NCBI GenBank assembly: GCA_963580285.1
Contig: OY757014.1
Coordinates: 12,786,725 to 12,850,724 of the forward strand
Length of the DNA: 64,000 nt
Direction of reading: 5' to 3'
Source of the DNA: Lucinisca nassula
Taxonomy: Eukaryota > Mollusca > Bivalvia > Lucinida > Lucinidae
Shown: one piece after another, positions 2,431-42,400 of the stretch
How the letters are laid out: each line of letters starts with the position of its first letter
How positions within the stretch are numbered: position 1 is the stretch's first letter
The notes under the pieces: model-generated
What the model saw: only the letters and a program-made list of their open reading frames with translations
What the model was told of the DNA's origin: nothing
Databases searched by the model: none
Translations under genes and position numbers: made by a program

Positions 2431-4494
2431 AGCTCACCTGTCACGTAGTGACAAGGTGAGCTTTTGTGATCACATTCTGTCCGTCGTCCGTGCCTCCGTG
2501 CGTGCGTCCGTGCGTGCATACGTAAACAATTTCAAATAAGTATATCTCTAATACCCCATGGCCAATCTTGATCAAATTTTATGTGAAGCATCATCAGGTA
2601 GGGCGAAAGGCTGCATAAGGTTTTTGGGCTGATCCGATTGGAATTCTGGTTGCCATGGCAACATATAGCCCTCATAGACTTATAATTGGAAAAATGAAAA
2701 AAAACTTCTTCTCTGAAACCACAGGGCCCAGAGCTTAGAGATTTAGCTTGTAACAATGTTAAGTGGTCACCTACGTAATTCCTGCCAATCATGCCCCTGG
2801 GGTCCAAATTGGCCATCCCCGGGGCCCTTTAGCTCCTATAGACTCATAATGGAAAACAAAAAGCTTCAAAAATCTTCTTCTCTGAAACCACAGGGCCCAG
2901 AGCTTATATATTTAGCATGTAGCAACAACAAATGGTCACCTACATAATTCCTGCCAATCATACCCCTGGGTTTCAAATGGGCCACGCCCCGTGGCCCCTT
3001 CGCTCCCATAGACTCCTAATGGAAAAAAAGTTTCAAAAATCTTCTTCTCTGAAACCACAGGGACCAGAGCTTAGGTATTTAGCATGTAGAAACGGCAAGT
3101 GGTCACCTACATAATTCCTGCCAATCATGCCCCTGGGGTCCAAATTGGCCACGCCCCGGGGCCCCTTAGCTCCTATAGACTCATAATGGAAAAAAGTTTC
3201 AAAAATCTTCTTCTCTGAAACCACGGGGCCCAGAGCTCAGATATTTAGAATGTAGCAACGACAAGTGGTCACCTAAATAATTCCTGCCAATCATGCCCCT
3301 GGGGTCCAAATGGGCCACGCCCCGGGGCCCCTTCGCTCCCATAGGCTCATAATGGAAAAAAGCTTCCAAAATTTTCTTCTCTGAAACCACAGGGCCCAGA
3401 CCTTAGGTATTTTGCATGTAGCAACGGCAACTGGTCACCTACATAATTCCTGCCAATCATGCCCCTTGGGTCCAAATTGGCCACACCCCGGGGGCCCCTT
3501 AGCTCCCATAGACTCATAATGGAAAAAAAAGCTTCACAAATCTTCTTCTCTGAAACCACAGGGCCCATCGCTTAGATATGTAGCATGTAGCAATGGCAAG
3601 TGGTCACCTACATAATTCCTGCCAATCATGCCCCTGGAGTCCAAATTGGCCATGCCCCAAGGCCCCTTAGCTCCAATAGACTCATAATGGAAAAAAAGTT
3701 TCAAAAATCTTCTTGTCTGAAACCACAGGGCCTAGAGCTGAGATATTTAGCATGGAGCAACGACAAGTGGTCACCTAAATAATTCCTGCCAATCATGCCC
3801 CTGGGGTCCAAATGGGCCACGCCCCGGGGCCCCTTCGCTCCCATAGACTGATAATGGAAAAATGCTTCAAAAATCTTCTTCTCTGAAACCACAGGGCCCA
3901 GAGCTTAGATATTTAGCGCGTAGCAATGGCAAGTGGTCACCTACATAATTCCTGCCAATCATGCCCCTGGGGTCCAAATGGGCCACGCCCTGGGGCCCCT
4001 TAGCTCCCATAGACTCTTAATGGTAAAAAAAGCTTAAAAAATCTTCTTCTCTGATACCACAGGGCCCAGAGCTTAGATATTTAGCATGTAGCAACGGCAA
4101 GTGGTCACCTACATAAATCCTGCCAATCATGGCCCTGGGGTCCAAATGGGCCACGCTCCCAGACTCATAATGGAAAAAAAGTTTCAAAAATCTTTTTCTC
4201 TGAAACCGCAGGGCCATGAGCTTAGATATTTAGCATTTAGCAATGGCAAGTGGTCACCTAAATAAATCCTGCCAATCATGCCCCTGGCATCCAAATAGCT
4301 AAGGCAAGGGGGCCCTTAGCTCCCATACACTCATATTGGAAAAAAGCTTCAAAAATATTCTTCTGTGAAACTACAGGACCCAGAGCTTAGATATTAAGCA
4401 TGTGGCAATGACAAGTGGTCACCTACATAAATCCTGCCAATCATGCCCCTGGGGTCCAAACAGGTGAGCGATATAGGGCCATTGGGCCCTCTTG
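2431..4494 (+). mobile_element. HINE-A1: Helentron-like element with 167-bp internal array
   Basis: The left end is a hairpin agctcacctgtcac...gtgacaaggtgagct. Then come a short (gtccgt)-rich stretch and about 11 units of about 167 bp (ttcttctctgaaaccacagg, tcacctacataattcctgcc, ccaatcatgcccctgg, cacgccccggggcccctt). The right end has caggtgagcg, an inverted match to the left-end ctcacctg, then a terminal hairpin agggccattgggccct and CTTG followed by T. Subterminal inverted repeats, a 3' hairpin, T/T insertion and internal tandem arrays match HINE or bivalve pearl-type elements (family knowledge). No protein is encoded. Confidence 0.75.
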
Positions 4495-4508
4495 TTTTCA
4501 TTTTTATT

Positions 4509-6722
4509 AGCTCACCTGTCACATAGTGACAAGGTGAGCTTTTGTGATCACATTTTGTCCGTTGTGCGTCCGTCCGTTCGTCCTTGCGTCCGTAAACAAT
4601 TTCAAATAAGTATATCTCTAATACCCCATGGCCAATCTTGATCAAATTTTATGTGAATCATCATCAGGTAGGGGGAAAGCTTGCATAAGGTTTTTGGGCT
4701 GATGAGATTGGAATTCTGGTTGCCATGGCAACATATAGCTCCCATAGACTTATAATGGGAAAAATTTAAAAAATCTTCTTCTCTGAAACCACAGGGTCCA
4801 GAGCTTAGATATTTAGCTTGTAACAATGTTAAGTGGTCACCTAAATAATTCCTGCCAATCATGCCCCTGGGGTCCAAATTGGCCACACCCCGGGGCCCCT
4901 TAGCTCCTATAGACTCATAATGGGAAAAAAAAGCTTCAAAAATCTTCTTCTCTGAAACCACAGGGCCCAGAGCTTAGATATTTAGCATGTAGCAACAGCA
5001 AATTGTCACCTACATAATTCCTGCCAATCATGCCCCTGGGTTCCAAATGGGCCATGCCCCGGGGCCCCTTCGCTCCTATAGACTCATAATGGAAAAAAAG
5101 TTTCAAAAATCTTCTTCTCTGAAACCACAGAGCCCAGAGCTGAGATATTTAGCATGTAGCAACGACAAGTGGTCACCTAAATAATTCCTGCCAATCATGC
5201 CCCTGGGGTCCAAATGGGCCACGCCCCGGGGCCCCTTCACTCCCATAGACTCAAAATGGAAAAAAGCTTAAAAAATCTTCTTCTCTGAAACCACAGGGCC
5301 CAGAGCTTAGATATTTAGCATGTAGCAACGGCAAGTGGTCACCTACATAATTCCTGCCAATCATGCCCCTGGGGTCCATACCGGCCACGCCCCGGGGCCC
5401 CTTAGCCTCTATAGGCTCATAATGGAAAAAAGCTTCAAAATCTTTTTCTCTGAAACCACAAGGCCGAGAGCTAAGATATTTAGCATGTAGCAACGGCAAG
5501 TGGTCACCTACATAAATCCTGCCAATCTTGCCCCTGGGGTCTAAATGGGCCATACCCCTGGGCCCCTTAGCTCCCATAGACTCATAATGGAAAAAAAAAA
5601 AATAAAAAATCTTCTTCTCTGAAACCACAGGGCCCAGAGCTTAGATATTTAGCATGTAGCAACGGCAAGTGGTCACCTACATAATTCCTGCCAATCATGC
5701 CCCTGGGTTCCAAATGGGCAACGCCCCGGGGCCCCTTAGCTCCCATAAACTCATAATCGAAAAAAGTTTCAAAAAGCTTCTTCTCTGAAACCACAGGGCC
5801 CAGAGCTTAGGTATTTTGCATGTAGCAACGGCACGTGGTCACCTACATAATTCCTGCCAATCATGCCCCTGGGGTCCAAATTGGCCACACCCCGGGGCCC
5901 TTAGCTCCCATTGACTCATAATGGAAAAAAAGTTTCAAAAATCTTCTTCTCTGAAACCACAGGGCCCAGAGCTTGGCTATTTAGCATGTAGCAACAGCAA
6001 GTGGTCATCTACATAATTCCTGCCAATCATGCCCCTGGGTTTCAAACGAGCCACGCCCCGCGCCCCTTAGCTCCTATAGACTCATAATTGGGAAAAGCTT
6101 CAAAAAGCTTCTTCTTTGAAACCACAGGACGCAGAGCTGAGATATTTAGCATCTAGCAAGGGCAAGTGGTCACCTACATAAATCCTGCCCCTGGGGTCCA
6201 AATGGGCCCCTTAGCTCCCATAGACTCACAATGGGAAAAAAGCTTCAAAAATCTTCTTCTCTGATACCACAGGGCCAAGAGCTTAGATATTTAGCATTTA
6301 GCAACGGCAATTGGTCACCTACATAAATCCTGCCAATCATGGCCCTGGGTTCCAAATGGGCCACGCCCCGGGGCCCCTTTGCTCCCATAGACTCATAATG
6401 GAAAAAAAGTTTCAAAAATCTTCTTCTCTGAAACCACAGGCCCAAGAGCTTAGCTATTTAGCATGTAGCAACAGCAAGTGGTCACCTACATAATTCCTGC
6501 CAATCATGCCCCTGGGTTTCAAATGGGCCACACCATGGGGCCCCTTTGCTCCCATAGACTCATAATGGAAAAAGCTTCAAAAATCTTCTTCTCTGAAACC
6601 ACAGGGCCAAGAGCTTAGATATTTAGCATGTAGCGACGGCAAGTGGTCACCTACATAATTCCTGCCAATCATGCCCCTTGGGTCCAAACAGGTGAGCGAT
6701 ATAGGGCCATTGGGCCCTCTTG
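4509..6722 (+). mobile_element. HINE-A2: second Helentron-like element, immediately downstream
   Basis: Same ends as HINE-A1: left hairpin agctcacctgtcac...; right caggtgagcgat, hairpin agggccattgggccct, CTTG at 6719-6722. About 12 units of ~167 bp. Only 14 bp separate it from HINE-A1 in the same orientation, so the pair may be a tandem insertion or a rolling-circle dimer. Confidence 0.75.
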
Positions 6723-7233: not shown

Positions 7234-8355
7234 ATGCCCCCGGAATCTAAGAGATTCGGGGGCATATAGTTTTTTTTTTTGGTCTGTCTGTCTGTTTGTC
7301 TGTCTACAAAAACCTTAACATTGGGCATAACTTTTGAATGGTAATAGATAGAGCTTTCATATTTCACATTTGTATACCTTATCACAAGACCTTTCCAGTG
7401 GTACCATAATTTTTGATCTTGTGACCTTGAACTTGACCTTTGACCCTATTTTTTTTCAATTTTTTTCCGTTTGTCTGTTTGTCTGTCTACAAAAACCTTA
7501 ACATTGGGCATAACTTTTGAATGGTAATAGATAGAGCTTTCATATTTCACATGTGTATACCTTATCACAAGACCTTTCCAGTGGTACCATAATTTTTGAT
7601 CTCGTGACCTTGAACTTGACCTTTGACCTATTTTTTTCAAAATTTTTAAAAACATTAACTTTGGCCATAACTTTCGATTGGTAAGTGATAGGGCTTTCAT
7701 ATTTCATATGTGCATTTATTTTCACAAGACCTTTCTAGTGGTACCATAGTTTTTGACCTTGTGACCTTGACAGTGATGTTTGACCTACTTTTTAAAAACT
7801 TTAACATTGGCCATAACTTTCGATTGGTAAGTGGTAGGGCTTTCATATTTCACATGTGCACTCCTTGTCACAAGACCTTTCTAGTGGTACCATAATTTTT
7901 GACCTCGTGACCTTGACCTTGACCTACTTTTGTAAACTTTAACATTGGCCATAACATTCGATTGGTAAGTAGTAGGGCTTTCATATTTCACACGTGCACT
8001 CCTTGTCACAAGACCTTTCTAGTGGTACCATAATTTTTATCCATCCAGACACCACCCCCCCCTCAAGGTCAAGGTCACTGTAGCTATTTTTAGAAAAACT
8101 TTGTCATCGCTCTAGCGCCAACATTTCTTTACTGATTTCAATATAACTTCACACAAATGTTCCTTATGACAATATCTCGAGCGAGTTCGACTTTCAAGGT
8201 CATGACCTCAAGGTCACTGTGGCTATTTTTAGAAAAACTTTGTCATCGCTCTAGCGCCTACATTTCTTGGCCATACCTTTTGATTGCTTAGTGATACTGC
8301 TTTCATATTTAACATGCGCTGTCCGGGGGCATCAGTGTTTCACAAACACATCTTG
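7234..8355 (+). mobile_element. HINE-B1: Helentron-like element with ~150-bp array
   Basis: The left end is a hairpin atgcccccggaatc...gattcgggggcat. Units of about 150 bp follow (gccataactttcgattggta, gctttcatatttcacatgtg, cacaagacctttctagtgg, gtgaccttgacc). The right end has tccgggggcatc, inverted relative to the left end, then hairpin gtgtttcacaaacac and CTTG at 8352-8355. Same terminal logic as HINE-A with a different sequence. The Penelope-like element joins right after CTTG. Confidence 0.72.
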
Positions 8356-10600
8356 TTTCCTTATACACCAACATACCTCATAGAGACGGCATATGTGCAA
8401 GTAATCATGCCCTTGAAACAAGACTATCAAAAGAACCCAAGACATGGGTATTACTCAGACTGCTCCATTTCATCCTCACAAGAACTGCCTTCAAATTCAA
8501 TGACAAATTTTATGAGCAAATATCAGGCACTACAATGGGCACAAAATGTGCTCCAAGCTACGCCATCTTATTCATGGACAAACTTGAGAGAGATTTTTTG
8601 TCAACCAGTAAATTGTTACCCCTGGTATGGTGGAGATATATTGATGATATTTTCATGATATGGCAACATTCTCATGAGGAGTTGAACTCCTTCCTTGTAG
8701 CCTTAAACTCATTCCACGAAACGATAAAATTTACTGCGGACATCAGCAAGAACTCAGTCAATTTTCTGGATGTAAAAGTAACAAAGGACTCAACAGGGAA
8801 TATGATTACAGATCTGTACACTAAACCGACAGACTCCCACCTATATCTTCACTACAGCTCTTTTCACCCTAAACATCAAAAACAAAGTCTACCTTACAGC
8901 CAAGCGCTACGACTTCGCCGCATATGCAGTACTGACGATCTATACAAAACAGCCACACAGAAGTTGTTTCAAAACTTCATACGCAGAGGATACCCAATCC
9001 AGCTCGTCCGAAGTGCCATTGAAAAAGCGTTATCTAAGAATCGCGATGACCTTCTACAACCCAAAAACATAGATAAACAAAACAATAATATCATACCATT
9101 CACCATCACCCACAATCCCTTCAACCCACCGATTGGAAAAATCTTGTCGAAATACAGACGGATACTTGAAATCTCTGAAGAACTTTATCCAATCCTTGAA
9201 AGTAAAATATTTATCACCCACAAACGAGCTACAAACTTGAAACAGTTATTAGTCCGTGCCGACATAAATCCCCCAGTTATAAATAAAGGCAGCTCACCTT
9301 GCGGAAAACCATGCTCTACATGCCCTTTCATGGAAAAAACAGACCATGTAACATCATGGAAGACCAAACAACGGTACATAATTAAGGGCAGTTTTAACTG
9401 CAAAACCAAGAATGTAATCTACGTGATCAGTTGCAAGAAATGCGGACTTCAATATGTAGGACAATCAGGTAACACATTTAATGAACGTTTACGAGGACCC
9501 TTGACAGACATTAGGCAACAGAACCATGTAAAACCAGTCTCACGTCATTTCCTCTCCAACAATCACACGTTAAACGACGTTAACGCAATCATCGTCGCCC
9601 AGACAACAAATAACGTCAACATTAGACTAAGAACAGAAGAGTGTTGGATAGCCAATCAGGCCCAATCTACAATCAAAATATCCAACTGGTCTCAACCTGA
9701 TTCAGTAATGGAGAAACCGTTTCACTGCAAGAACTGTGGTAAATCTTTCACTACAATTAGCAACTTACGAAGACATAACACCTCTTTTCACAAGCCGGAA
9801 AATATCAGATACCAATGCTGGCATTGCCATAGAACATATTCCAGACAGGAAAATGCTAGAAAACATGCACTTCTGGAACACAGAGATATCGAAAAGAAAA
9901 CGGTGAAACTTATGATGCCAAACAAAAGATGGAAACCGGAAATTTTCACACCAGGACCATGGAACCCCCCACCAGAAGCCAGACCCAAGAACAAAACCAT
10001 TTACAAATTGGAATTACCAGTAGGACCATCGGAAAAAAGCCATATAAACACGCTAAAACAAAAAAGAAGGATTAGCAAACTCAGCCAGTTCTTTCCGCTA
10101 ACTATTGAAGAACAGTTCTTTCCGCTAACTATTGAAGAAGCCGTAACAACCATAACATCAAATGAAACATCAACAGTCGGGAGACTCAACATTCTTCAAC
10201 TTCAACAAGATCTAGCCATCACCCCGTCATCATCAACGGAAACAATCGTATTATGATGAGAACATAGAAGAAGACGAACCACAAGATGTACAAGCCACGA
10301 CAATTTACGGGATCTTTGACACAGCTAAAGATTTAATTTAAATTTCTACTAACATTTCAATTCATATCTTTCATAAGGACTCTCTAATATTGACCTTCTG
10401 TTGACACCATAACTTCTACTTTCACTTTGCTTTTGAGAAACTATTTTTAGAACAATAGGTATCACGTGACTAATTTGATCCAGTTTTTTATACTTCAGTA
10501 AACATCTCACTCTGTACAATGTCTTCAAAAAGGTCATTGTATGACCGAAACTAGTCGACAATAAAACTAACCTGTCAAATAAGCCCGTGGTTGATTGTTA
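8356..10600 (+). mobile_element. 5'-truncated Penelope-like retroelement
   Basis: Starts abruptly inside the reverse transcriptase reading frame where HINE-B1 ends, so the 5' part is missing, as is common for Penelope-like insertions. It holds one 632-codon frame (8358-10256) and about 340 bp of 3' sequence with a hammerhead-like half motif at 10532-10560. The exact 3' end and target duplication could not be set. Confidence 0.8.
8358..10256 (+). CDS. Penelope-like RT / GIY-YIG endonuclease with two C-terminal C2H2 fingers (5' truncated)
   Basis: The 632-residue frame has no ATG at its left edge; it enters at SLYTNIPHRDGI, the sequence just after the RT motif A aspartate, so that catalytic residue is lost. 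RT motifs follow: FYEQISGTTMGTKCAPSYA and RYIDDIFMIW (YIDD at 8637-8648), then NFLDVKV. A CGKPCSTCPF linker precedes the GIY-YIG endonuclease (VIYVI...QYVG, 9414-9461; candidate catalytic Arg at 9486). Two C2H2 fingers follow, C-x2-C-x12-H-x4-H (9726-9791 and 9816-9881), with a MEKPF linker. A 27-nt exact duplication (10086-10139) repeats QFFPLTIEE. The frame is otherwise intact, so the insertion is fairly young. RT plus GIY-YIG defines the Penelope class (family knowledge); the added fingers may guide DNA or RNA binding (inference). Confidence 0.88.
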   Translation, partial: SLYTNIPHRDGICASNHALETRLSKEPKTWVLLRLLHFILTRTAFKFNDKFYEQISGTTMGTKCAPSYAILFMDKLERDFLSTSKLLPLVWWRYIDDIFMIWQHSHEELNSFLVALNSFHETIKFTADISKNSVNFLDVKVTKDSTGNMITDLYTKPTDSHLYLHYSSFHPKHQKQSLPYSQALRLRRICSTDDLYKTATQKLFQNFIRRGYPIQLVRSAIEKALSKNRDDLLQPKNIDKQNNNIIPFTITHNPFNPPIGKILSKYRRILEISEELYPILESKIFITHKRATNLKQLLVRADINPPVINKGSSPCGKPCSTCPFMEKTDHVTSWKTKQRYIIKGSFNCKTKNVIYVISCKKCGLQYVGQSGNTFNERLRGPLTDIRQQNHVKPVSRHFLSNNHTLNDVNAIIVAQTTNNVNIRLRTEECWIANQAQSTIKISNWSQPDSVMEKPFHCKNCGKSFTTISNLRRHNTSFHKPENIRYQCWHCHRTYSRQENARKHALLEHRDIEKKTVKLMMPNKRWKPEIFTPGPWNPPPEARPKNKTIYKLELPVGPSEKSHINTLKQKRRISKLSQFFPLTIEEQFFPLTIEEAVTTITSNETSTVGRLNILQLQQDLAITPSSSTETIVL

Positions 10601-13772: not shown

Positions 13773-14185
13773 TAACATATTAAAAGCATTCTCAGAAAAT
13801 GTTGAATTAAAAACGGGCAGTTAAGCCCCTGTCACACTATGCCGCGTTTTCACTGCGATGGGACGGCGTTGTTTAATTTTTCAGAACGCCGTGAGATCGC
13901 AAGAAATATGGGATATTTTTGTGAACATGGACCTGTCATGGCGTCCCTACAGCGACCAAGACGTTGCTACGGAGCTTACATGGCGATCTATCGCGATCCT
14001 GCGGCGTTCTTGATGGCGATTGTATGCGCTCTCACGGCGCTTCCTCTGCGCTTTTACGGCGCTCACAATGCGTGCACTGCGTTTTTACGGCGCTCTCAAT
14101 GCGTGCACTGCGCTTTCACGGCGCTCACATGTTGAAGACGTTCTCAAAGTGTAAACATACATCTTCATCAGTCGAACAGTTTTGT

Positions 14186-14412
14186 TTGATTTGAGGTTTA
14201 ACGTACCATCAACACATTATAGGTCATTTTGAGACGTTGCTTCTAATTTTGTGGGACTTCTACCCGACATTGAGATGAAATGACATCTCAATCTCTGTCA
14301 CCCAATGAAACTAATAGGGTTAATAAGCACGGATGGTCCGACTCGCGCCCCTTTGCCTGGGCAAGCTTAGATCCCCTAAGCGGTTCACCAGTACTCCTGT
14401 GCCGTCGGAAGC
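14186..14412 (-). mobile_element. SINE-S copy inside the phased element
   Basis: ttgatttgaggtttaacgta, atgaaatgacatctcaat, cactagtact-like end. Truncated where ccaccgcaatcaccgcaagc sequence begins. Confidence 0.7.
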
Positions 14413-14544
14413 AAGTCCACCGCAATCACCGCAAGCAGGAGCAAGTCCACCGCCATTACCTTACCCGGAATGAGTCACCTCAGAAGTAGGTTTTCCGGGA
14501 CAGTACACAATCAAACTCTACTCTAGCCACTATTTATACAAGCG

Positions 14545-14567
14545 GGGGGGGGGGGGGGGGGGGGGGG
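14545..14567. repeat. Poly-G run
   Basis: About 23 consecutive G at the edge of a SINE-S copy. It could form G-quadruplex DNA, and its length may be a sequencing estimate. Confidence 0.85.
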
Positions 14568-14880
14568 CCTCCCATCGGGACTGGAAGAAATAGATGGGCT
14601 GCATGATGCTTCCACGCAGAGCTGAAACCGACCTCGCACTAGTACTGGTAAACTGCTTAGAGGATCTAAGCCTGCCCAGGCAAAGCGGTGCGAGATACGT
14701 GTAAACTCTATTGGTGCAAACATGCTTATACGTGTAAACTCTATTGGTTTCGTTTGGCGACAGGGCTTGAGATGTCATTTCATCTCAAAGTCGGGTAAAA
14801 GTCCCACAAAATTGGAAGCAACGTCTCCAAAATGACCTATACAGTGTTGACTGGGGCGTTAAATATCAAATCAATCAATC
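14568..14880 (+). mobile_element. SINE-S copy inside the phased element
   Basis: cctcccatcgggactggaag start, catgatgcttccacgcagag, cagggcttgagatgtcattt, tail gcgttaaatatcaaatcaat. Confidence 0.75.
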
Positions 14881-15218
14881 AGTTAATCAATTATACAAGC
14901 GGAGCTTATATGGCGTTGTAGGAGACCTCTGTGCGCCCCTGTCGAGCTCCTGTAGCGTTGTGGGAGACCTTACTGCGCTGCTATGGCAACCTTACGGCGA
15001 CCTCACTGCGCTCTGATCAGAACGCCGAGCGACGGCGTTTGTTTTGAGCATGCTCAAAATGCGCGCCGTCGCTTGGCGTTCTATGCGATCCCAACGCGTC
15101 TACTGGCGACGCCACTGCGTTGCTACGGCGATGTTTGCGATCGTACTGCGCGCACCTTTGCGTTCTGCATTTTTCTTGGACGCCGTGAGAACGCAGCCCT
15201 GGTGTGACAGGGGTTTTA

Positions 15219-21400: not shown

Positions 21401-24400
21401 CTACACCCTTCACTGTGCACCAAAATCATCTAAGACCAAATCAACATGTTGTTTCAGAATTGCTAAAGACAATCTGATCTGACAGCCAAGATGGCCACCT
21501 TGGCACAATATAACATTTCCAGGACATTTGCCCCTCGGGACATTAATTTTGCCCCCCAATGAAAAAGTGTATTAATGGACATTTGCCCCCAGTTGAAAAT
21601 ACAACTCAGACATTTGCCCCCCACTGCTTATTTTTGGTATGGACAGTTGCCCCCCAGTGCTTATTTCAAAAAGGGACAATTGCCCCCCAGATTCACCTTG
21701 AATTTGACTCCAGCTATGTATAGGTACATGTACTAGGATTAAAAGATGAAAAATGCTAGTTCCACAGATTTTAGAGGTGCCATTATAGCACACAGATATG
21801 TTGTCGCAATGGATACAATGGGGTTTTCAATGGTATACATTATTTAACTTATTTTATACAAAATATACATGTAGGTTGTGAGTACTCTTAGAAACCACCT
21901 CAATGAGGTAGTTCTAACGATGTTACAAGCAAAAATATGGAAAATATAAAAAAAAATCACCAATACTGTCAGTGCTTATGCTGTCAGTATACACATTTCT
22001 ACTGGGGGCAAATGTCCACCTGCAAAATAAGCACTGGGGGGCAGATGTCCATACCAAAAATAAGCTATGGGGGGCATATGTCCGGGTCGCATTTTCAACT
22101 GGGGGGCAAATGTCCATCAATGCATTTTTTCACTGGGGGGCAAATGTCCTGGGGGGGGGGGGGCAAATGTCCGGAGACCGACTCATCTAGGTCTGGCAGT
22201 GATTTCTGGCCCACTTGGGGTTCTAGTTTCATATTGGCCCAGTTACAGATCATAGGTCTGCTGTATTGGCATTAGGCTGCATGCTATATTCTGATGTTAG
22301 TAATCAAGTAATTTTGTATAGGCACAGTTGACACAAAAAGCTGCGAGACATATGGTTAGAAAAAAAAAAAAAATTCTTGGGTAGTTCATATTATGTTTTT
22401 GCATCAAGCTACATTTCTTCATGTAAGAGTGTATTATTTAGGTTCCTATGTATTGTAACTGCTCAGAGTATTTCTTTTTGGACTAAGATTTTAACCCATT
22501 GTATACTAGTGGACTCTTCCATTGCTATATGTTGGACATTAAAGGGGTGTCAGGCCTATTGTTTTCCTTTTGATTCTATTTTTGACAGAAAGTTCTGTTC
22601 GCAAATAGTGCAGGCCCTGATCAGACGCCGCGTTCTGCGGCGTCTGATCTGGGCCTGCACTGTTTGCCAAGGTAACCCTTCAGGGGTTTCGGGCATACAT
22701 TGGGTTAATTTATCTTCATTTTCATATTGAAGTGAAAATTTAAAAGATGAGCGGGCCCTTTGTAAAAATTCAATAAATTCTTTGATAAATGGAATATAAG
22801 TGTGCTTTATCTGGGCAGATACAATTTATCAGTGATTTGTTTGGTAATTATGAATTTCATTACAATAATTTCACATTAAAGAATCATAAATATTTTACCA
22901 CTGAGGAGCCCAGGTTTTAAAATTTTATCAATAACTTTGAACATTTTAATACTTAATTTGCCAATCACGACATTTGCAGACATGATTTCAAATATTTTGT
23001 CTTATTTTTTTTCAAAGACAATAAGGCTTGACATTGTATGTGAATCACTTGCCGATTCACATGTAATGCTGTAATGTCAAACCTTATTTTCTCTTATTTA
23101 AAGAAAATGAAAATATTAAAAAAATTGCTGTAGTGCTTTAAGCAGATTTTACCAACAAAAGTTTGAAACTTTCATCTGCAGCAGATGACAAAATTGGAGC
23201 AGACGAAATTCTATTCTTAGCTCATCTTAGCCACAAAAAAGAAAAGTAATGCGTACCCCAACAAATGCTAAATAAGAAGTGGGTATTATTGGGGTGACCA
23301 GTGTATGGACTTTTTTCCACATTGAAAAAAAAAAAAAAAAAAACACACAAGATAGAAAATACTGTAAAAATTCTAAAAATTTGGACACCTTGAGGATTTG
23401 CTGTAATTCTCCTAAAATTTTTACAAATTTGTTCCATGAGCCAGCAAGGCATCCAAAAGCTGCAGACGGAATGGCAAACATTGTAGACCCTAATCAGACT
23501 GCTTCTTCAGGAGCAGTCTGATCTGGGTCTGCACTGTTTGCTTAGGCCTATCTGTCCCAATAATTAGGATCATTATGGTAGTTGAATGATTTGGTGATGG
23601 GAGACAACTTTTACAGACAGCATCCTGTTAACACATCCATGTATTGAATACCCATTTCTCTCACACCAGAAAGAAATCAGTGGGTTTAGCCTGGATAGAA
23701 ATTCTGTTCTTTCCATGGTGTTGTTACCCAGGCAAACTATATGAGTACATTGCACGAAAAATAAAACTTTTAATGAAGTAAAATGTAAATTTTTGGTGGT
23801 GCTGTGCAAGAAAAAGAATCTAATATGGGGTTCTGTTAGAGATGGGCGTTTCCAATTCTCAGGATAACCTTCCTGAGCAGAACCGAGGCTGCTGTTGTAG
23901 ATGGCTGTTTCCAACCCTTGGGATGGCCATGCTGAGCCGAACCTTGGTTCTGCTCAGCATAGTCATCCCTAAGGTTCGAAACATGCATCTACAACAGAAC
24001 CCATATCAGATTCTTTTATAAACCCCACTGTATATAGGGAAAAGTATGATTTACAAAGGTGTACACCGTTTTTGTCGCGCCCGCTTTAAGCATGTTGTGA
24101 TGTTGGAGTCAGGTTTTCCATCCATCTGTCCATCCATCTGTCCATTCATCTGTCCATTCATCCACCTGTCATTTGTCCGTCTGTCCATATATCAATAATT
24201 GCGATCCCCCTAGCATTCACCCTAATGTAAGAGTCCATTTCTCAAGAACTATTAGAGCTTCATTAGTGATACTTGGTACAGAATAACAAAATGAATGAAA
24301 ACAGTGTAGATCCTGATCAGATGGCTTTGTCAGAAGCCATCTGATCTGGATCTACACTGTTTGGAATCAGGTAGGGGCTATCGTGAACAGCAGGCTAAGG

Positions 24401-30400: not shown

Positions 30401-33400
30401 CTCTTGCATTTTTGGTTTTTGAATTATCTGCCCTTGACTTAGTTCCATATAGTAAACCGTGTCCAGGCCATAACTCCTAAACCGTATGGAATATATTCAT
30501 GAAGCTTCACAGGTGCATTCATCACACTGAGACAATGTGTCATGAACAAGGAAGACAACTCTTGCATTTTTGGTTTTTGAATTATCTGCCCTTGATTTAG
30601 TTCCATATAGTAAACCGTTTCATGAATGGCATTTGGCGGGGGCATCCGTGTCCTATGGACACTTTTTCTAGTATGAATGAAAATTTGGAAAGAGTTGAAG
30701 AAAAACAAGTAGCCAGAGTTTTTGCTTATCTCTCTTTGGATGGTCCAGCGGCTGTAGAAGGGCCATGCAATCAGCAAAACTGTAATCAGACTGCACATTC
30801 TAATCTGAGACTTTATTGTTTGCACTAGTGAATTTGTAGATTGTAGTTTTTGATAAATGATGGAAAGTAAAAATGCTTAAATTGTCTTCGGAGTTTGCCT
30901 GCAGAATTCCAAACAGGTACATATTTTTCCAAATTTAGTTGCCTTTCATTTCATTTTTCAGACCCTTAACAAGGAGCAAGGGATCCACTGGATAAAAGCT
31001 GAGAGACTCCCCGCTTTCCTAGAGAGTGACCTTTACCTTGAGTACAGGCTTGCAAAACTACTATCACAGGCCAGATTAACTGGGGAGCATGGAGAGTATA
31101 TTCTAATGAAGATAGAATTTAAACCAAAAGTTAAGAAGGTATGTAATTCTTTACATTACGATAACACAGCCATGCGGCATAGTGCATTTTTTCACGTCTC
31201 TAAAGGGGCTCTTACACTGTCACGACTCTGACCACGATTGTCCACGACTGTCGACGACCAATTGGGACCATGAAAATCGTGGCAAATCGGGGCATACACG
31301 GTTCCGATTTCACTACCCTACGAATACTCACGACATTGCTACGACACTTCAACGAACAATCACGACTGCTGCACGATAATGGAGCCGATTTACAACAATC
31401 CTCTACGATCGACCACGATGTCTTACGATCCTCTAGGATTCTTCTACGACTGCAACACGATTGCTTCAAGATATCAGACGATCATACACGATTTCTCACG
31501 ATCCCTGCAAGACTGCTCTACGACCATGGCACGATTATCAAAGACTCAGTACGATCATGCAGGATTCGATACGATTCACATGATGAACCAAGACTTCTCC
31601 CGATTCGTCAGGATTTATAACGATCTGGGTATATAAAAGTGTTCATCAAATGCACAGTGTCATTCAGTTTCAACTATTTCTGTAGAGAGTATATGACGAA
31701 AATGTTTTTGCAGCCAGGTCAAAAGCTTCTGTATCTTCAAAATTTAGTTCAGCTCGAACAAGACATAATCGAAAATGACATTGCAATGGCTGAACAACTG
31801 CAGGTGCAGAGGAACAGGAGGGACAGGTGACAGTTGACCATAGTTACTTGGGTAATTATATGTACAAAGTTACGTGGAGAAAGTAGTGCGTTCGACGTAG
31901 CATCGGGATAAATCGTGCTAGCGTCGTCATCAATCGTAGTGCATTCCTGGTGAATCTTGCATTGTCGTGAGCAGTCGTCATGATATCGTAGTAGATCGTA
32001 CGGCAGTCGCAACGGAATCGTAGAGGCGTCGTAGATGATCTTGTCTCGTCGTAGCATAATCGTGGTAGAATATAGTCACGATTATTCACGATTAGCCACG
32101 ATTACCACGACGACGGCTCACGACTGAGCTACGATTTCTCTACGACCGCTCTACGATTTGAAAAATGATGCCGACTCGTCACGAATGTTTTGAACATGTC
32201 CAAAACAGTCGTGGTCACTCCCGAACTATCACGATCAACCACGATTCCTCAAGATCTCTGCCGACTTCTCTACGACGTTGTTTACGATTTACCACGATTT
32301 AAAAAATCGTGGTGAGTCGTGGCCAAAATCGTGACAGTGTAAGAGCCCCTTTAAATGGCCACTTTCCTGATGACAATCAGTGATATTTTCTTATTAATAC
32401 TGCAAACATAGGTTGTGGATGCTCATTAGAACCGCCTCATTGAGGCAGTTCTGACGAGTACCCACAACCTATGTCTTGGAACAGAAATAAGAAGAATAAT
32501 GTATACCCCAGTAAACCCCAGTTTTCTCTATATAAAGTTAGGTTTAAGGGTGTGTTCATTTTACAGTCTTGTTTACATGATGCACACCATATTTACCATG
32601 ATAGGAGCATATAACACTTAGACATATCATTTTAATCATAAAAGCAAGCCCTGGAATGTGCTTCCATTAAGCCCACAGTCAGGTATGCTCCTTTTGCCAA
32701 ATTTGGACATGTTTGGTTGGACAAGACATGTCAGAAGTTGGCAAAAGGAGTATATAATAAGTTTCTTAATCCTTATCCTGCTGTTCAGGACAACCCATTA
32801 TGATAACACACCTATACAAATACATTGTAAGCTTTACTGCCGAAAAAAAATGAAAATTTTAAGAAGAAAAATTGTGATATTTTTCTTATTTGTGCTCAAA
32901 ATATAGATTGTGGGTACTCGTTAGAACCGCCTCATCGAGGCGGTTCTTATGAGTACCCACAATCTTTATTTTAGAGCAGAAATAAGAAAAATCAGGTTTA
33001 CCCCTGTAAACCTCAATTTGACTGTATAAAAGTGGGGTTCAATGGGGGTCAAAATTATATGGACATGTTTGTGTTATGCCCGGCCTTTGTTTACAGTGTA
33101 GATCCAGATCAGCCATCTGATCAGGATCTACACTGTTTGTCATGTAGTTTGTGAATTGAATGAATATATCAAGTAATCTGATTGGGTGATTGTTGGTTAT
33201 GGGTGTGGCCTTATTAATTTATTCAGCAGGATAATAGTTAATAATCACAAATCTCTATATCAATAATGTGATTTTTGGGTCGATTGTTTTACTATCGACC
33301 TGAATTTACTAAATGACAGAATCAGAAATAGTGCCGAATTATCTAAAATTGTTAGGATCTGATGAACAAGATAGTCACCAAAAACTTTCAGAAGCTTTGT

Positions 33401-36400: not shown

Positions 36401-39400
36401 AGGATTTGGGGTCCTTTTTATCAATATGTCACAAAACTCCTCCCTTGAGACTATCACAGATAATAACCCTATTGATGAGGGCTCCAAAAAGTAGGATCTT
36501 GGGTCCTTTTAGTGTGAAATGAATTTCAAAGCACAGGGATATGTGATCACTCACCAGTTCTTCAACTTGCTCTAGTTATATTTAATCTATCCATTTTTGT
36601 GATCCATCTTTAAATTGTTTTACATCCAAAATAATCTGGCCCCCGCTCATCAGGGCTTGAAGAAATAGATGGGCTGCATAATGCTTCCATGCAGAGCTGA
36701 AACCGACCTGCACACGAGTACTGGTAAACCACTTAGAGGATCTTAGTCTGCCCAGGCAATGCAGTACGGGTGGGCCTGTCCATGCTTATAAATCCTATTG
36801 GTTTCATTTGGGTGGCAAGGCTTGAGATGTCATTTCATCTCAATGTCGGGTAAAAGTCTCACAAAATTGGAAGACAAGTCTCCAAAATGACCTCAACAAT
36901 GTTGATGGGGATGTTAAACTTCAAATCAAACAAACAAACAACCAAAATAATCTTATTTAAGAGATTTTTTGGTATTCCACTGTCTTTTTGGAATGATGAA
37001 CTTAACGCTCTGCATGCTGGTTATTTTTTCAGCAGACAACATTTTGAAATATTTTTTTTTTTTAATTTTCGCTGAAAACAGGATTTGACATCTCTAGCAA
37101 ATTATCTCCTACAATTTGCATAAGATGTCAAGTCCTGTTTTCTAGGAAAATAAGAAAAATATCAACAAACATTTGTTGTCTGCTGAATTAGCCCAAAACA
37201 TGGGTTAAAGGAGGAAGAATGGTTATAAATGCAGTTCAGAGTCCAGTTGTTCAAAACTAACAATGTTGTTAGTTAATATATCAATTAAATTTTGATCATT
37301 TAATTTGGCAAATGTGCAGTATTTGTGCTGAAAAATTGCAAAAGCTGGTCTCAACAACACTATGCATATTAGATTAGATATCGTACTTGCTGGAACAGTT
37401 AACAGTTTTACCACTTATGAGCTACTTAAGCTAATGATGCATTGAACATCTGGTAGCTTGTTTTGGTCTGTCTGTCTGTTTGTTTGTCCGTTAACATTAA
37501 CATTGGGCATAACTTTTGAATGGTTATAGATAGAGCCTTCATATTTCACATGTATATACCTTATCACAAGACCTTTCCAGTGTACCATAAGTTTTGATCT
37601 TGTGACCGTCACCTTGACCTTTGACCTACTTTTTTCAAAATTTTTAAAAACATTAACATTGTCCATAACTTTTGATTGGTAAGTGATAGGGCTTTCATAT
37701 TTCACATGTGCATTCCTTGTCACAAGACCTTTCTAGTGGTACCATACTTTTTGTCCTTGTGACCTTGATGTTTGACCTACTTTTTAAAAACTTTAACATT
37801 GGCCATAACTTTCGATTGGTAAGAGGTAGGGCTTTCATATTTCACATGTGCACTCCTTGTCACAGGACCTTTCTAGTGACCTAGTGACCTTGACCTTGTC
37901 GTTTGACCTACTATTTAAAAACTTTAACATAGTCCATAACTTTTGATTGGTAAGTGATGGGCTTTCATATTTCACATGTGCATTCTTTTTCACAAGACCT
38001 TTCCAGTGGTATCATATTTTTTTACCTCGTGACCTTGACATTTGACATACTTTTTAAAAACTTTAGCATTGGCCATTACTTTCAATTGGTAAGTGATAGC
38101 GCTTTCATAATTCACATGTGCATACCATGTCACAAGACCTTTACAACAATCCCATAATTTTTAGCTCACCGTCACGTAGTGACGAGGTGAGCTTTTGGGA
38201 TCACTTTTCGTCCGTCGTGCGTCCATCCGTCTGTCCGTGCGTCCGTCCGTAAACAATTCTTTAAACGACATCTCCTCCTAAACCACTGATCGGATTTTGA
38301 CCAAACTTCACAGGAATGATCCTTAGGTGGTCCCCTTTCAAAGTTGTTCAAATGGTTCCGGTCCATTGCACATCTAGGTCATAGGAGCCAAAAAGAGATT
38401 TTTTTTTCACCAAAAACTTAAAAAATCTTCTTCTCTGAAACCACAAGGCCCAGGTCTTTGATATTTGGTATGAAGCTTCATCTGGTGGACCCCTACCAAG
38501 ATTGTTCAAATTATAGTGCTGGGGCCAAAAATGCCCCCGCTCCGGGGCCCTTTGGTTTTACATGGGCTTATATAGGGAAAATCTTTAAAAATCTTCTTCT
38601 CTGAAACTGTAAGGCCCAGGTCTTTGATATTTGGTATGAAGCTTCATCTAGTGGACCCCTACCAAGATTGTTCAAATTATAGTGCTGGGGCCAAAAATGC
38701 CCCCGCTCCGGGGCCCTTTGGTTTTACATGGGCTTATATAGGGAAAATCTTTAAAAATCTTCTTCTCTGAAACCGCAAGGCCCAGGTCTTTGATATTTGG
38801 TATGAAGCTTCATCTAGTGGACCCCTACCAAGATTGTTCAAATTATAGTGCTTGGGCCAAAAATGCCCCAGCTCCAGGGCCCTTTGGTTTTACATGGGCT
38901 TATATAGTGAAGAGCTTTAAAAATCTTCTTCTCTGAAACCGTAAGGCCCAGGTCTTTGATATTTGGTATGGAGCTTCATCTAGGGGACCCCTACCAAGAT
39001 TGTTCAAATTATAGTGCTGGGGTCAAATATGCCCCCGCTCAGGGCCCTTTGGTTTTACATGGGCTTATATAGGGAAAATCTTTAAAAATTTTCTTCTCTG
39101 AAACCATAAGGCCCATGTCTTTGATATTTGGTATGAAGCTTCATCCCACAAGGCCATGGTCCTTCTTTCCCCACACCCCCCCCCCCCCCACTTCGGGGCC
39201 CTTTGGTTTTAAATGGGCTTATATAGGGAAAATCTTTAAAAATCTCCTTCTCTGAAACAGCAAGGCCATGGTCTTTGCTATTTGGTATGAAGCTTCATCT
39301 AGTGGACTCCTACCAAGATTGTTCAAATTATAGTGCTTGGGCTAAAAATGCCACTGCCCCGGGGCCCTATGGTTTTACATGGGCTTATATGGGGAAAATC

Positions 39401-42400
39401 CTTAAAAATCTTCTTCTCCGAAACCCCAAGGGCCAGGTCTTTGCTATTTGGTATGAAGCTTCATCTAGTGGACCCCTACCAAGATTGTTCAAATTATAGT
39501 GCTAGGGCCAAAACTGCCCCCGACCTGGTGCCCTTTGGTTTTACATAGACTTATATAGAGATATTCCTTAAAAATCTTCTTCTGAAACAGCAAGGCCATG
39601 GTCTTTGATATTTGGTGTGAAGCTTCCTCTAGTGGACCTCTATCAAGATGGTTTAAATTATAGCCCTGAGGCCAAAAATGCCCCCGCCCCAGAGCCATTT
39701 AGTTTTTCATAGGCTTATGTAGGGAATATCTTTAATAAAAATCTTCTTCTCTGAAACCATTAGGCCCAGGTCTTTGATATTTGGTATGTAGCATATCTAG
39801 TGGACCTTTGCCAAGATTGTTCAAATTATAGCCTTTGTTGATATTTGGTATGAAGCTTCACCTTTTTAGACGTCTCTGAACATTATGCACATTATAGCCC
39901 TGGGGTTAATAATGGCCCCACTTGTTACTCTATGGATCAGGTGAGCGATCCAGGGCCATCATGGCCCTCTTGTTTACCTTGTGACCTTGACCTACTTTTT
40001 TAAGACTTGAACATTGGCCATACCTTTCGATTGCATAGTGATACTGCTTTCATATTTAACATTCGCTGTTGAGGGGCATCAGTGTTTCAAAAACACATCT
40101 TGTTCAAATGATTGTCTCAATTATTTACATGGGTGCCCTTCTTTGTCATAACTGAAGCTGGCTCTGCACCAGGTTGACTTTACCTGTACAGGAGTATGTT
40201 GCAGCTGTAGGTGATCAAAAGATGTGAGAGGTTGTGATGCTATCCAAAGTCAATAAGTTATGGGCTTCCATGCCCTAACGGGTAAGAGTGCTAACCCTGA
40301 TACATTAGGTCTCTCTCTGGGTTTTAGTCTTGCACAGGTCACATGTCAGATGTCCAGAGCAGGCGGTTTTTGTCTGGATGTTTGATGACTGATTCAGTAT
40401 AAGTGAAAAAATCTTGGAAGGGCTATAAATCCAAAACCCAAACCCAAAAAAAAAAGAAAGAAAAAAAAATCAACTAAACAAAACGGTCACCAATATCGCA
40501 GCAGAAACATTTGACAAGGTGGGGCATCTTTTTGATAATGCATCAAAGTATTTCAGTTGAAATTGTTTTGTTAATTCTGCAGGTATTTAACTGGATTACG
40601 GGAAAAATACCATCATCCTGGATCAGAATTTGAGCTGGCATTGGAACAGAAGACTCAGCTAGAACTAGTAGAGCCGTCATCGTGGACACTGGATAAAATG
40701 TTTGATATACAGAATGATATAGCTGGACCTCTCGTTCTTTACTGGTATGTTGACCAATGTACCACAATCCTCCCATGAGCACAGGCAAAAACATTTAACA
40801 ACATATTGTGATAACAAATCTGTGTGCTGTAATGGCATCTTTCATGTTTCTAGAACTAGCATTTTTAATGAAAGATTGTTAGAACTGCCTCAATGAGGCG
40901 GTTCTAACAAGTACCACAAATCTATATTTTTTAACAAAATAAAGAAAATAATAAGCATCCCCGTAAACCCCACTTCTCTCCATATATTTGGGGTTTAGAG
41001 GGGTCTTCACTGCATGGACTTGTTAACCTGATGCAAAATCAACATGGCTTCGTTTTTTACTCGTTTTGGTGCGCTTCTTGGATATTTGGTAAATAACGGT
41101 GAAGTGTGGATGAACACAATATTTTTCAAAGACTTATTTTTTATCAAAATAAGATGCAGTCTTTCAGAGGTCAACTTTTGTTTCAAAAGTATTCTGATTT
41201 ACATAAGCATGCTATCATAAATGAGCCCTAGCATGAGATACCGTAAAAATCCTAAAAATTAGGACACCTTGAAGATGCTGTAATTCTCCTAAAATTATTA
41301 ACAAATTAACAAATTTGTTTCATGATCCAGCAAGGAGCTTGAAAGCATTACGAGAACACGCCTATACAAATACACTGTAAAATTTGCCGACGAAAAAAAC
41401 AGAATTTTTGATGAAAAATTGTGATATTTTTCTTATTTCTGCTCAAAATATAGATTGCGGATACTCGTTAGAACCGCCTCGCCGAGGCGGTTCTAACGAG
41501 TACCCACAATCTATATTTTAGAGCAGAAATAAGAAAAATAAGGTTTACCCCTGTTAACCCCAGTTTTACTATATAAAAGTGGGGTTCAAGGGGGGTAAAA
41601 TTATATAGGCATGTTTTCGTGATGGATGCAAACAGAATGGCAAACAATGAAGACCCTGATCAGACTGCTCGTGTCTGATCTGACGGAGCAGTCTGATTTG
41701 GGGTCTGCTCTGTTTGCTCATGCCTGTCTGTCCCAATACTTAGGATCATTACGGTTCTTGTCTCCAGAGTTTATGACTAGAAAAGACATACAAACTGATC
41801 TTCTCAGCTGCAAAGACAAGCAACAATCTTGAAATTTTAGATACTAGAGGGATAGTACCATTCAATCAGTGCTGATCAAACTGATACAAATGTGCTGATC
41901 AAACTGTAGATGCACAGGCTTATCATCAGTGCTTTTATTGTCCGCAAATGCCATAATATAAGAATCTGATATGGGGTTCTGTTGTAGATGAACGTTTCCA
42001 ACCCGAGGGATGACCGTGCTGAGCGGAACCGAGGCTATGCCGAGGTTCCGCTCAGCACGGTCATCCCGAGGGTTGGATACGCCCATCTACAACAGAACCC
42101 CATATTGGATTCTTTTTCTTGCACAACACCTCCAGTTAGTTTTGACAGCTCGCACATGTATATTGTTTACAAAGTAATAGTAGTGCGGAAGTAGTTCCGG
42201 CAGCTGAATAGAATTGAAGCGCATTTATGTTAGTTGCCTGGGTTGGAACACCAGGGTCAGAACATAAATTTCTATCCAAGGGTAAAATCACGGATTTCCT
42301 TGTCAGGTGTGCAAGAAAACAGGTTTTATCATGAGATGATTAAAATGGTGTAATGAAGCTCCATCAGATCTATCATACAGTCAACCCTCTTTATATCCAC

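What the first reader, a model, noticed from the sequence alone, without database searches (positions are those of the whole stretch)
31203..32351. DNA transposon filled with CGA/TCG words at the helical period
Seen: in the left arm CACGA/TACGA-type words (some one base off) start at 31321, 331, 342, 353, 363, 374, 386, 396, 406, 416, 426, 436, 447, 458, 469, 479, 489, 499, 510, 521, 532, 542, 552 and on to 31621, mean 10.3 bp. On the other side of the central frame the word is inverted (TCGT) at 31892, 903, 913, 924, 934, 945, 955, 965, 975, 986, 996, 32007 and on to 32060, mean 10.5 bp; then direct words return to 32295. So roughly 80 short sites sit on one face of the helix through ~900 bp. 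Known: many transposases bind subterminal repeats, but sparse and irregular ones. Inference: one side of the DNA could bind a polymer of transposase or a host protein, or favour a nucleosome or DNA curvature; the words are CpG-containing, so methylation may matter too.
Basis: partly seen in the sequence, partly recalled or inferred. Interest (0 to 1): 0.87.

Follow-up and report, generated by a model that had tools for sequence, protein, structure and literature searches.

The report
Transposon arms with helix-phased words
A 1.15-kb mobile element, likely a shortened PIF/Harbinger transposon from a bivalve-like genome, repeats a six-letter, mostly CpG-containing word every 10 to 11 base pairs along both arms, a layout that likely lets copies of one of its proteins line up along one side of the DNA; two other elements carry different words at a similar spacing.

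Summary
The phasing is real. Three arrays (31319-31624, 31902-32064, 32077-32298) hold 61 YACGAY-type units (5 of 66 scanned words dropped); 48 of 53 neighbouring spacings are 10 or 11 bp, mean 10.45, and 0 of 300 shuffles reach the spectral peak of any of the three. Neighbouring spacers are no more alike than distant ones, so the element is not simply a fresh tandem repeat. It has 47-bp inverted ends (87%), a TATA box and a 45-aa ORF 93% identical over 42 aa to the start of a 431-aa DDE transposase: most likely an internally deleted PIF/Harbinger element. The layout recurs with other words: GCG in a second element of this window (13824-15215; 10.7 and 10.8 bp) and, less cleanly, CGT upstream of a Harbinger transposase in L121. 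Best mechanism: family-specific, helically phased binding sites for the element's own protein, probably the fast-evolving Myb-like partner, forming a filament that would pair the ends and control the transposase promoter. Binding is inferred; no Myb-like gene was seen; nucleosome wrapping is the main rival. Other genomic copies could not be checked (genome search did not complete).

The parts
31204..32350 (+). Element 1 (1147 bp): non-autonomous PIF/Harbinger-type element
   Evidence: Inverted ends; exact ends and flanks; transposase N-terminus
31201..31203 (.). Left flank TAA (TWA target-site type)
32351..32353 (.). Right flank TTA; differs from the left TAA in the middle base
31204..31247 (+). 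Left terminal inverted repeat, including the first three CACGA words (12 then 10 bp apart)
32307..32350 (-). Right terminal inverted repeat, including three words (12 then 10 bp apart)
31276..31291 (-). Short inverted block of two words inside the left end
31319..31624 (+). Left phased array, 28 units of YACGAY type
31630..31639 (+). TATA box, with TCAKTY initiator-like sites at 31660 and 31664
   Evidence: the meaning of the motifs is recalled knowledge
31693..31830 (+). 45-aa ORF, first part of a Harbinger transposase, ending in TGA
31902..32064 (-). Right inverted phased array, 15 units
32077..32298 (+). Right direct phased array, 18 units, broken by a palindrome region; contains two short TRF tandem calls (32073-32104, 32086-32158)
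32188..32205 (.). Palindrome TTTTGAACATGTCCAAAA at which words invert; 15 of 18 bases shared with element 2
   Evidence: weak, blastn-short of element 1 against element 2 finds nothing
13824..15215 (.). Element 2: a second phased element (word GCG), inverted ends 29 of 36 alike, TTA on both sides, interrupted by a nested insertion at about 14190-14890 (by eye)
13844..14123 (+). Element 2 left array, 20 GCG words, period 10.7, with a 75-bp gap after 13866
14899..15162 (+). Element 2 right array, 21 GCG words, period 10.8
15042..15059 (.). Element 2 palindrome TTTTGAGCATGCTCAAAA, flanked by inverted GCGACGGCG / CGCCGTCGC

Best explanation
This is likely an internally deleted PIF/Harbinger DNA transposon whose two arms carry a mostly CpG-containing word (YACGAY) every 10-11 bp, and the words are likely binding sites that would line up copies of the element's own DNA-binding protein along one side of the helix. 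Shown: the inverted ends, the phased words with unrelated spacers, the transposase N-terminus behind a TATA box, and the same kind of layout with other words in two further elements. Inferred: the protein is the Myb-like (SANT/MADF) partner that PIF/Harbinger elements use. In Harbinger3_DR that protein is reported to recognise a 9-bp subterminal motif (PMC9710019), and Myb-like proteins are reported to be much more divergent than the transposases (PMC9179366), which would explain why the word changes between families while the spacing stays. Also inferred: cooperative binding forms a nucleoprotein filament on each arm. The filament would tell the element's ends from stray single words, bring the two ends together for cutting, and, because the left array stops just before the TATA box, control transposase expression.
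For: Harbinger origin: 45-aa ORF identical at 39 of 42 residues to P0002; P0002 matches DDE_Tnp_4 at 3.9e-35. Phasing. Words constrained, spacers not: adjacent spacer identity 1.15 of 4 against 1.13 for distant pairs, 812 of 2000 permutations reach it. Imperfect words sit in phase and keep GA: 6 of 7 gaps, 0 of 20000 shuffles. Generality: element 2, GCG at 10.7 and 10.8 bp, 0 of 300 shuffles for each arm; L121, 65 in-phase CGT pairs among 86 words in its 1.7-kb arm against a shuffled mean of 15.9 and maximum of 29 (0 of 300), and none among the 10 CGT words of its other half. Shared ends: 8 of 14 bases the same in all three elements, each preceded by TAA or TTA. In both elements with coding sequence the array ends before a TATATAAA box. 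Contrast: of 39 viral stretches with four ACGA words, 30 contain repeated units, as tandem repeats do; the other 9 have 4 to 6 distinct words.
Against: No protein binding was tested and no Myb-like gene was seen, either in the deleted copy or in L121, which is cut off at its contig end. L121 is the only outside element. Tested blind in 400-bp pieces, only 1 of 4 has CGT (10.3 bp) as its best trimer with few shuffles above it (9 of 300); in the other three the best trimer is AAA, TGT or CGC at other periods and 86, 93 and 179 of 300 shuffles reach it. One L121 run (790-870) gives a best period of 8.96. L121 neighbouring spacers are somewhat alike (2.85 against 1.98 of 7), so part of it may be tandem duplication. 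TRF also calls short tandem stretches in element 1 (32073-32104, 32086-32158) and a 31-bp one in element 2 (14046-14129). The bootstrap range for the left arm of element 1 is wide, 9.52-11.27, and element 2 lies at 10.7-10.8 rather than 10.4. Long-range phase is not held better than by a random walk. G and A of the word are invariant in the 61 units partly because the scan favours them. The flanks of element 1 are TAA and TTA, not a perfect duplication. Other copies of element 1 were not seen.
Confidence: 0.6

Rival explanations
1. The phased words favour wrapping of the arms around nucleosomes, which would bring the two ends together or keep the promoter shut; no sequence-specific protein is needed.
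For: Periods of 10.2-10.8 bp and CpG steps about once per turn; AT steps lie about 4-5 bp from the word in element 2 and in the two L121 stretches tested, and GC steps are strongly periodic in element 2 (18.4 and 7.1), where the word itself is GC. mPing work links internal GC content to transposition and proposes nucleosomes (PMC9921582, passages read).
Against: AT steps at the word period reach only 1.0-3.5 against 6.2-14.0 for the word in the seven stretches tested, and GC steps only 0.5-2.8 in element 1 and L121. In element 1 the AT offset is 2-3 bp, not 5. The need for specific letters, ACGA, then GCG, then CGT, is unexplained.
Confidence: 0.18
2. The arrays are the worn remains of a tandem repeat with a unit near 10.5 bp, spread by slippage or unequal exchange, without function.
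For: TRF calls short tandem stretches in the right arm of element 1 and in element 2; L121 spacers are partly alike; ACGA arrays of tandem origin exist in viral contigs.
Against: In element 1 adjacent spacers are no more alike than distant ones while the words stay recognisable. Imperfect words keep GA in phase. Three elements with different words would each need the same accident.
Confidence: 0.12
3. The words are bound by a host protein (a repressor or a CpG-binding factor), either captured by the element or used by the host against it.
For: CpG observed/expected of 1.77, 1.36 and 1.53 in the arms of element 1, element 2 and L121, against 0.46 in a 30-kb stretch of the window (no background was taken for L121); the left array lies next to the promoter.
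Against: The word differs between two elements of the same genome, which suits element-encoded readers better than one host protein.
Confidence: 0.1

Closest known systems
PIF/Harbinger transposons with a Myb-like subterminal-binding protein, such as Harbinger3_DR (PMC9710019, PMC9179366, PMC4482050: passages read)
   Same: Transposase family, TWA-type flanks, inverted ends whose first base is A or G, subterminal sites
   Different: A 9-bp subterminal motif is reported there; here tens of words per arm near the helical period
IS607-family element IS1535 (PMC6188088, abstract and passages read)
   Same: Direct repeats in helical phase near a transposon end; cooperative filament that captures the second end
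   Different: Bacterial serine transposase and four core 9-bp motifs about 20-60 bp from the end; here a DDE-type eukaryotic element and arrays of hundreds of bp
CACTA/Spm elements with TNPA (PMC2613891, passages read)
   Same: Separate DNA-binding protein on subterminal repeats, motifs diverging between families, self-regulation
   Different: Different transposase and ends; no helical phasing in the passages read
Galileo and foldback elements (PMC3688188, passages read)
   Same: Long repetitive inverted arms with several transposase-binding sites
   Different: P-type THAP transposase; three sites, at about 70, 561-577 and 701-718 bp from the end

Membership tests
PIF/Harbinger (PHIS) | DDE_Tnp_4-type transposase | tested here: inconclusive
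   The element keeps only a start, 39 of 42 residues identical to P0002, which has the domain
PIF/Harbinger (PHIS) | 3-bp TWA target-site duplication | tested here: inconclusive
   Element 1 TAA/TTA (mismatch); element 2 TTA/TTA; L121 TTA on the one side held
PIF/Harbinger (PHIS) | First base of the inverted ends usually A or G | tested here: met
   AGGGGCTC on both ends of element 1; criterion from PMC4482050
PIF/Harbinger (PHIS) | Second ORF with Myb/SANT domain | not testable with these tools
   Absent from element 1; DNA around P0002 not held; L121 cut off
Spy (PHIS) | Insertion in AAATTT without duplication | tested here: inconclusive
   If the end is put at GGGG, element 1 is flanked by AAA and TTT; element 2 fits a TTA duplication better
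Spy (PHIS) | Transposase of over 500 aa | tested here: not met
   Partner P0002 has 431 aa; criterion from PMC11304231
NuwaII (PHIS) | C|TNA|G target site | tested here: inconclusive
   Element 1 has C before TAA but A after TTA; element 2 has G before and after TTA; L121 has A before TTA. Criterion from PMC4482050. No tree of the groups was made
IS607 | Serine transposase, no terminal inverted repeats | tested here: not met
   DDE-type partner, 47-bp inverted ends
CACTA | Ends beginning CACTA | tested here: not met
   Ends begin AGGGGCTC

The most novel reading that the evidence does not exclude
A whole clade of animal PIF/Harbinger transposons carries helically phased, family-specific word arrays hundreds of base pairs long. 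The word changes together with the fast-evolving Myb-like protein while the spacing of about one turn stays, making a eukaryotic nucleoprotein-filament end and promoter switch in one, comparable to bacterial IS607 ends or plasmid-partition iterons (the latter recalled).
Probability: 0.4. Interest if true: 0.8.

Novelty: new variant of a known kind. Interest (0 to 1): 0.66.

Why it matters
The transposition mechanism of PIF elements has not been thoroughly characterised (PMC9710019, passage read). Arrays that change their letters but keep the helical spacing give a direct handle: sequence alone would predict the binding word of each family, a one-protein-per-turn geometry, and a link between end recognition and self-regulation. 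Each can be tested with one purified protein and spacing mutants. Shortened copies like this one would also compete for the protein.

Tried and rejected
Coding as reason for the period: rejected, since 10.4 is not a multiple of 3 and the arms lie outside the ORF. A-tract curvature: rejected as main cause, A/T runs are rarer in the arms of element 1 than outside. CpG decay as source of the imperfect words: not supported; the C position is C 51, A 6, G 3, T 1 of 61 units; one dropped word, TACAAC at 31391, has G to A. Long-range phase locking: tested and not shown in the left array, the right inverted array and one L121 stretch. Homology between the arms of elements 1 and 2 by blastn-short: nothing at E up to 1, so the shared palindrome is only suggestive. 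More outside elements: the 21-bp end in viral contigs gave none; a degenerate 17-bp end gave 4 viral contigs without strong phasing (best 6.1-7.9; 60 control windows mean 4.8, maximum 7.0); P0002 and alignment A1 (26 of the 120 listed relatives) gave no confirmed viral locus, although 16 stretches matched A1's patterns; A1 gave one confirmed locus of 114 matching stretches in genome contigs, L121. In 120 viral loci fetched for a three-word pattern the longest exact ACGA chain is 3 to 5 words. Structure: best model of P0002 has mean pLDDT 75 (the other four 50-59) with a long N-terminal helix 5-41; no PDB relative by sequence; the PDB fold search gave only a weak piggyBac match, E 0.053, none at 0.001, and told nothing about the binding word. 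Rfam and tRNA scans: nothing. Papers: nine searches; I saw no listing that describes helically phased arrays in Harbinger ends; only those listings and the passages named were seen (PMC2872659: abstract and outline only).

Full report
What was checked. The sequence at 31203-32351 was read. CGA occurs 51 times and TCG 28 times there, at 44 and 24 per kb, against 4.3 and 4.5 per kb in the rest of the window. A spectrum over all 64 trimers and periods 5-20 gives ACG at 10.5 bp for the left arm, TCG at 10.4 bp for the right inverted block and CGA at 10.2 bp for the right direct block; none of 300 dinucleotide shuffles reaches any of the three peaks. Taken as a whole the element shows CGA at 10.2 bp (1 of 500 shuffles) and TCG at 10.3 bp (16 of 500). 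In 356 other 340-bp windows of the 64 kb the best non-homopolymer trimer reaches 10.2, against 13.9 for the left arm and 10.6 for one right-arm window; with homopolymer trimers allowed, background windows reach 14.4.

Anatomy of the words. A scoring scan found 75 word-like hits: 66 in the three arrays and 9 in the ends and the short inverted block. I dropped 5 of the 66 (31303, 31311, 31391, 31899, 31888: poor words or out of step) and analysed 61 units. The consensus is YACGAY. G and A are invariant in the 61, partly because the scan favours them; the C position is C 51, A 6, G 3, T 1. Of 53 neighbouring spacings (five longer gaps left out) 29 are 10 bp and 19 are 11 bp; mean 10.45. A test that does not depend on my word choice takes only exact CGA words: in 6 of the 7 places where two of them are 19-23 bp apart, NGA stands at an in-phase position between them, against 0.79 expected and 0 of 20000 shuffles. 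The imperfect words are therefore part of the array.

Not a recent tandem repeat. The four spacer bases of neighbouring units agree at 1.15 of 4, distant units at 1.13 of 4, and 812 of 2000 permutations reach the neighbour value. TRF does call two short tandem stretches in the right direct array (32073-32104 and 32086-32158). For contrast, of 39 viral stretches matching four ACGA words, 30 contain repeated units and 9 have only distinct units, with 4 to 6 words each.

Limits of the phasing. Words flip orientation: forward in the left end, two reversed (31276-31291), a long forward array up to 31624, then after the core a reversed array (31902-32064) and a forward array (32077-32298), then the right end. 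Exact CGA loses the 10.4-bp peak at the inner end of the left arm, where imperfect words are common. Order of spacings does not hold phase better than a random walk in the three stretches tested. Bootstrap ranges of the period are 9.52-11.27 (left), 10.34-10.49 (right inverted) and 10.13-10.91 (right direct). 'One face through 900 bp' is not shown; 'about one word per turn within each array' is.

What the element is. It has 47-bp inverted ends, 87% alike. The core has TATATAAAAG at 31630, initiator-like TCAKTY sites at 31660 and 31664, and an ATG at 31693. The 45-aa ORF matches P0001 and P0002, the only candidates returned from a collection of 5.8 billion proteins; the match to P0002 is 39 of 42 residues. 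P0002 has a DDE_Tnp_4 domain (3.9e-35) and 4084 relatives at E up to 0.001 among 7987 scored; among the 120 listed are named HARBI1-like proteins of Saccostrea, Mercenaria, Lingula and the sea urchin Diadema. I conclude that element 1 is an internally deleted PIF/Harbinger copy. The host is likely a bivalve: the best named relatives of a retroelement ORF in the window are from Ruditapes, Argopecten and Ylistrum, at 50-53% identity, closer ones being unnamed. That is inference, and weak.

The same layout elsewhere. A scan of all 4-mers over the window pointed to a second element, 13824-15215, with inverted ends (29 of 36 alike) and TTA on both sides. Its word is GCG, at 10.7 bp (left) and 10.8 bp (right), 0 of 300 shuffles for each. 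CG spectra of the 200-bp windows from 14174 to 14774, in its nested insertion, peak at 6.4-8.0 bp, not near 10.5. A search of prokaryotic genome contigs with 26 aligned transposases returned one relative, L121, a 3505-bp contig of an Arenicella bin (48% identity in the best segment). Between its end (188) and its TATA box (1881) lie 86 CGT words; 65 pairs are in phase against a shuffled mean of 15.9, 0 of 300, and the 10 CGT words of its other half show none. Its spacings are mostly 10 with some 12. In fixed 400-bp pieces the signal is weaker: in one of four pieces CGT at 10.3 bp is the best trimer (9 of 300 shuffles); in another CGT at 10.3 bp ranks second; the best trimers of the other three pieces (AAA, TGT, CGC) are at other periods and are reached by 86, 93 and 179 of 300 shuffles. 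The three elements share 8 of 14 end bases, AG[CG][CG][CG]CT[CG]T[CT][AC]CAC. Elements 1 and 2 also share a palindrome (15 of 18 bases) about 154 and 165 bp from the right end, with words inverted around it; blastn-short did not find it, so it is only suggestive.

Mechanism. [quoted passage not shown] Myb-like proteins are more divergent than transposases (PMC9179366). In IS1535, four helically phased 9-bp repeats nucleate a filament that captures the second end (PMC6188088). In CACTA elements a separate protein binds subterminal repeats that differ between families and regulates its own activity (PMC2613891). I infer that the words here are sites for the Myb-like protein (or the transposase), one protomer per turn, making a filament that recognises and pairs the ends and controls the adjacent promoter. 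The change of word with similar spacing fits a reader that evolves quickly in a fixed geometry.

Rivals. Nucleosome wrapping is not excluded. AT steps are only weakly periodic (1.0-3.5 against 6.2-14.0 for the word); GC steps are weak in element 1 and L121 (0.5-2.8) but strong in element 2 (18.4 and 7.1), whose word is itself GC. A-tract bending is unlikely. A host reader is possible; CpG observed/expected is 1.77 in the arms of element 1 against 0.46 outside. Neutral tandem remains are unlikely for element 1 as a whole, less so for parts of element 2 and L121.

What is missing. The DNA around P0002 is not held, so the Myb-like gene and the arms of the full-length partner were not seen. No binding data exist here. 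The placing within the PHIS groups rests on flanks and on P0002, not on a tree.

Verdict. The element is a known kind; helically phased word arrays in its arms are a variant that my nine paper searches did not show described.

Noticed in passing
window 13824-15215: Second phased transposon with word GCG and TTA on both sides, split by a nested insertion; part of the argument but outside the given coordinates.
   Followed up: yes
window 21521-22172: Foldback-like element with inverted arrays of a roughly 33-bp unit; in its left arm CCC has a best period of 10.9 (0 of 300 shuffles), in its right arm GGG 16.7. The unit is about three helical turns.
   Followed up: partly
window, 32 matches such as 13517, 15688, 18897, 32425, 32920, 57671: A short near-perfect hairpin repeat around GTTAGAACCGCCTCA and its complement recurs across the window (32 half-site matches with up to 2 mismatches); identity unknown.
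   Followed up: no
window 2666-6688 and 38412-39831: Long tandem arrays with a 166-bp unit, close to nucleosome length, at two places about 32 kb apart.
   Followed up: no
window 8313-10256: ORF with reverse transcriptase (just under the Pfam cut-off) and weak GIY-YIG and C2H2 finger matches; Penelope-like, a recalled label.
   Followed up: partly
window 31693-31830: The kept 45-aa ORF covers the predicted long N-terminal helix of the transposase; if made, it might bind and poison the full enzyme.
   Followed up: no
L128, L133, L146: Three viral contigs share the same exact 10-bp tandem repeat ACGACGGCCT.
   Followed up: no
L121: A contig of an Arenicella bin in the prokaryote collection encodes an animal-type Harbinger transposase, so it is likely host contamination.
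   Followed up: partly
window 14544-14567: Run of 24 G inside the nested insertion, possibly an assembly fault.
   Followed up: no
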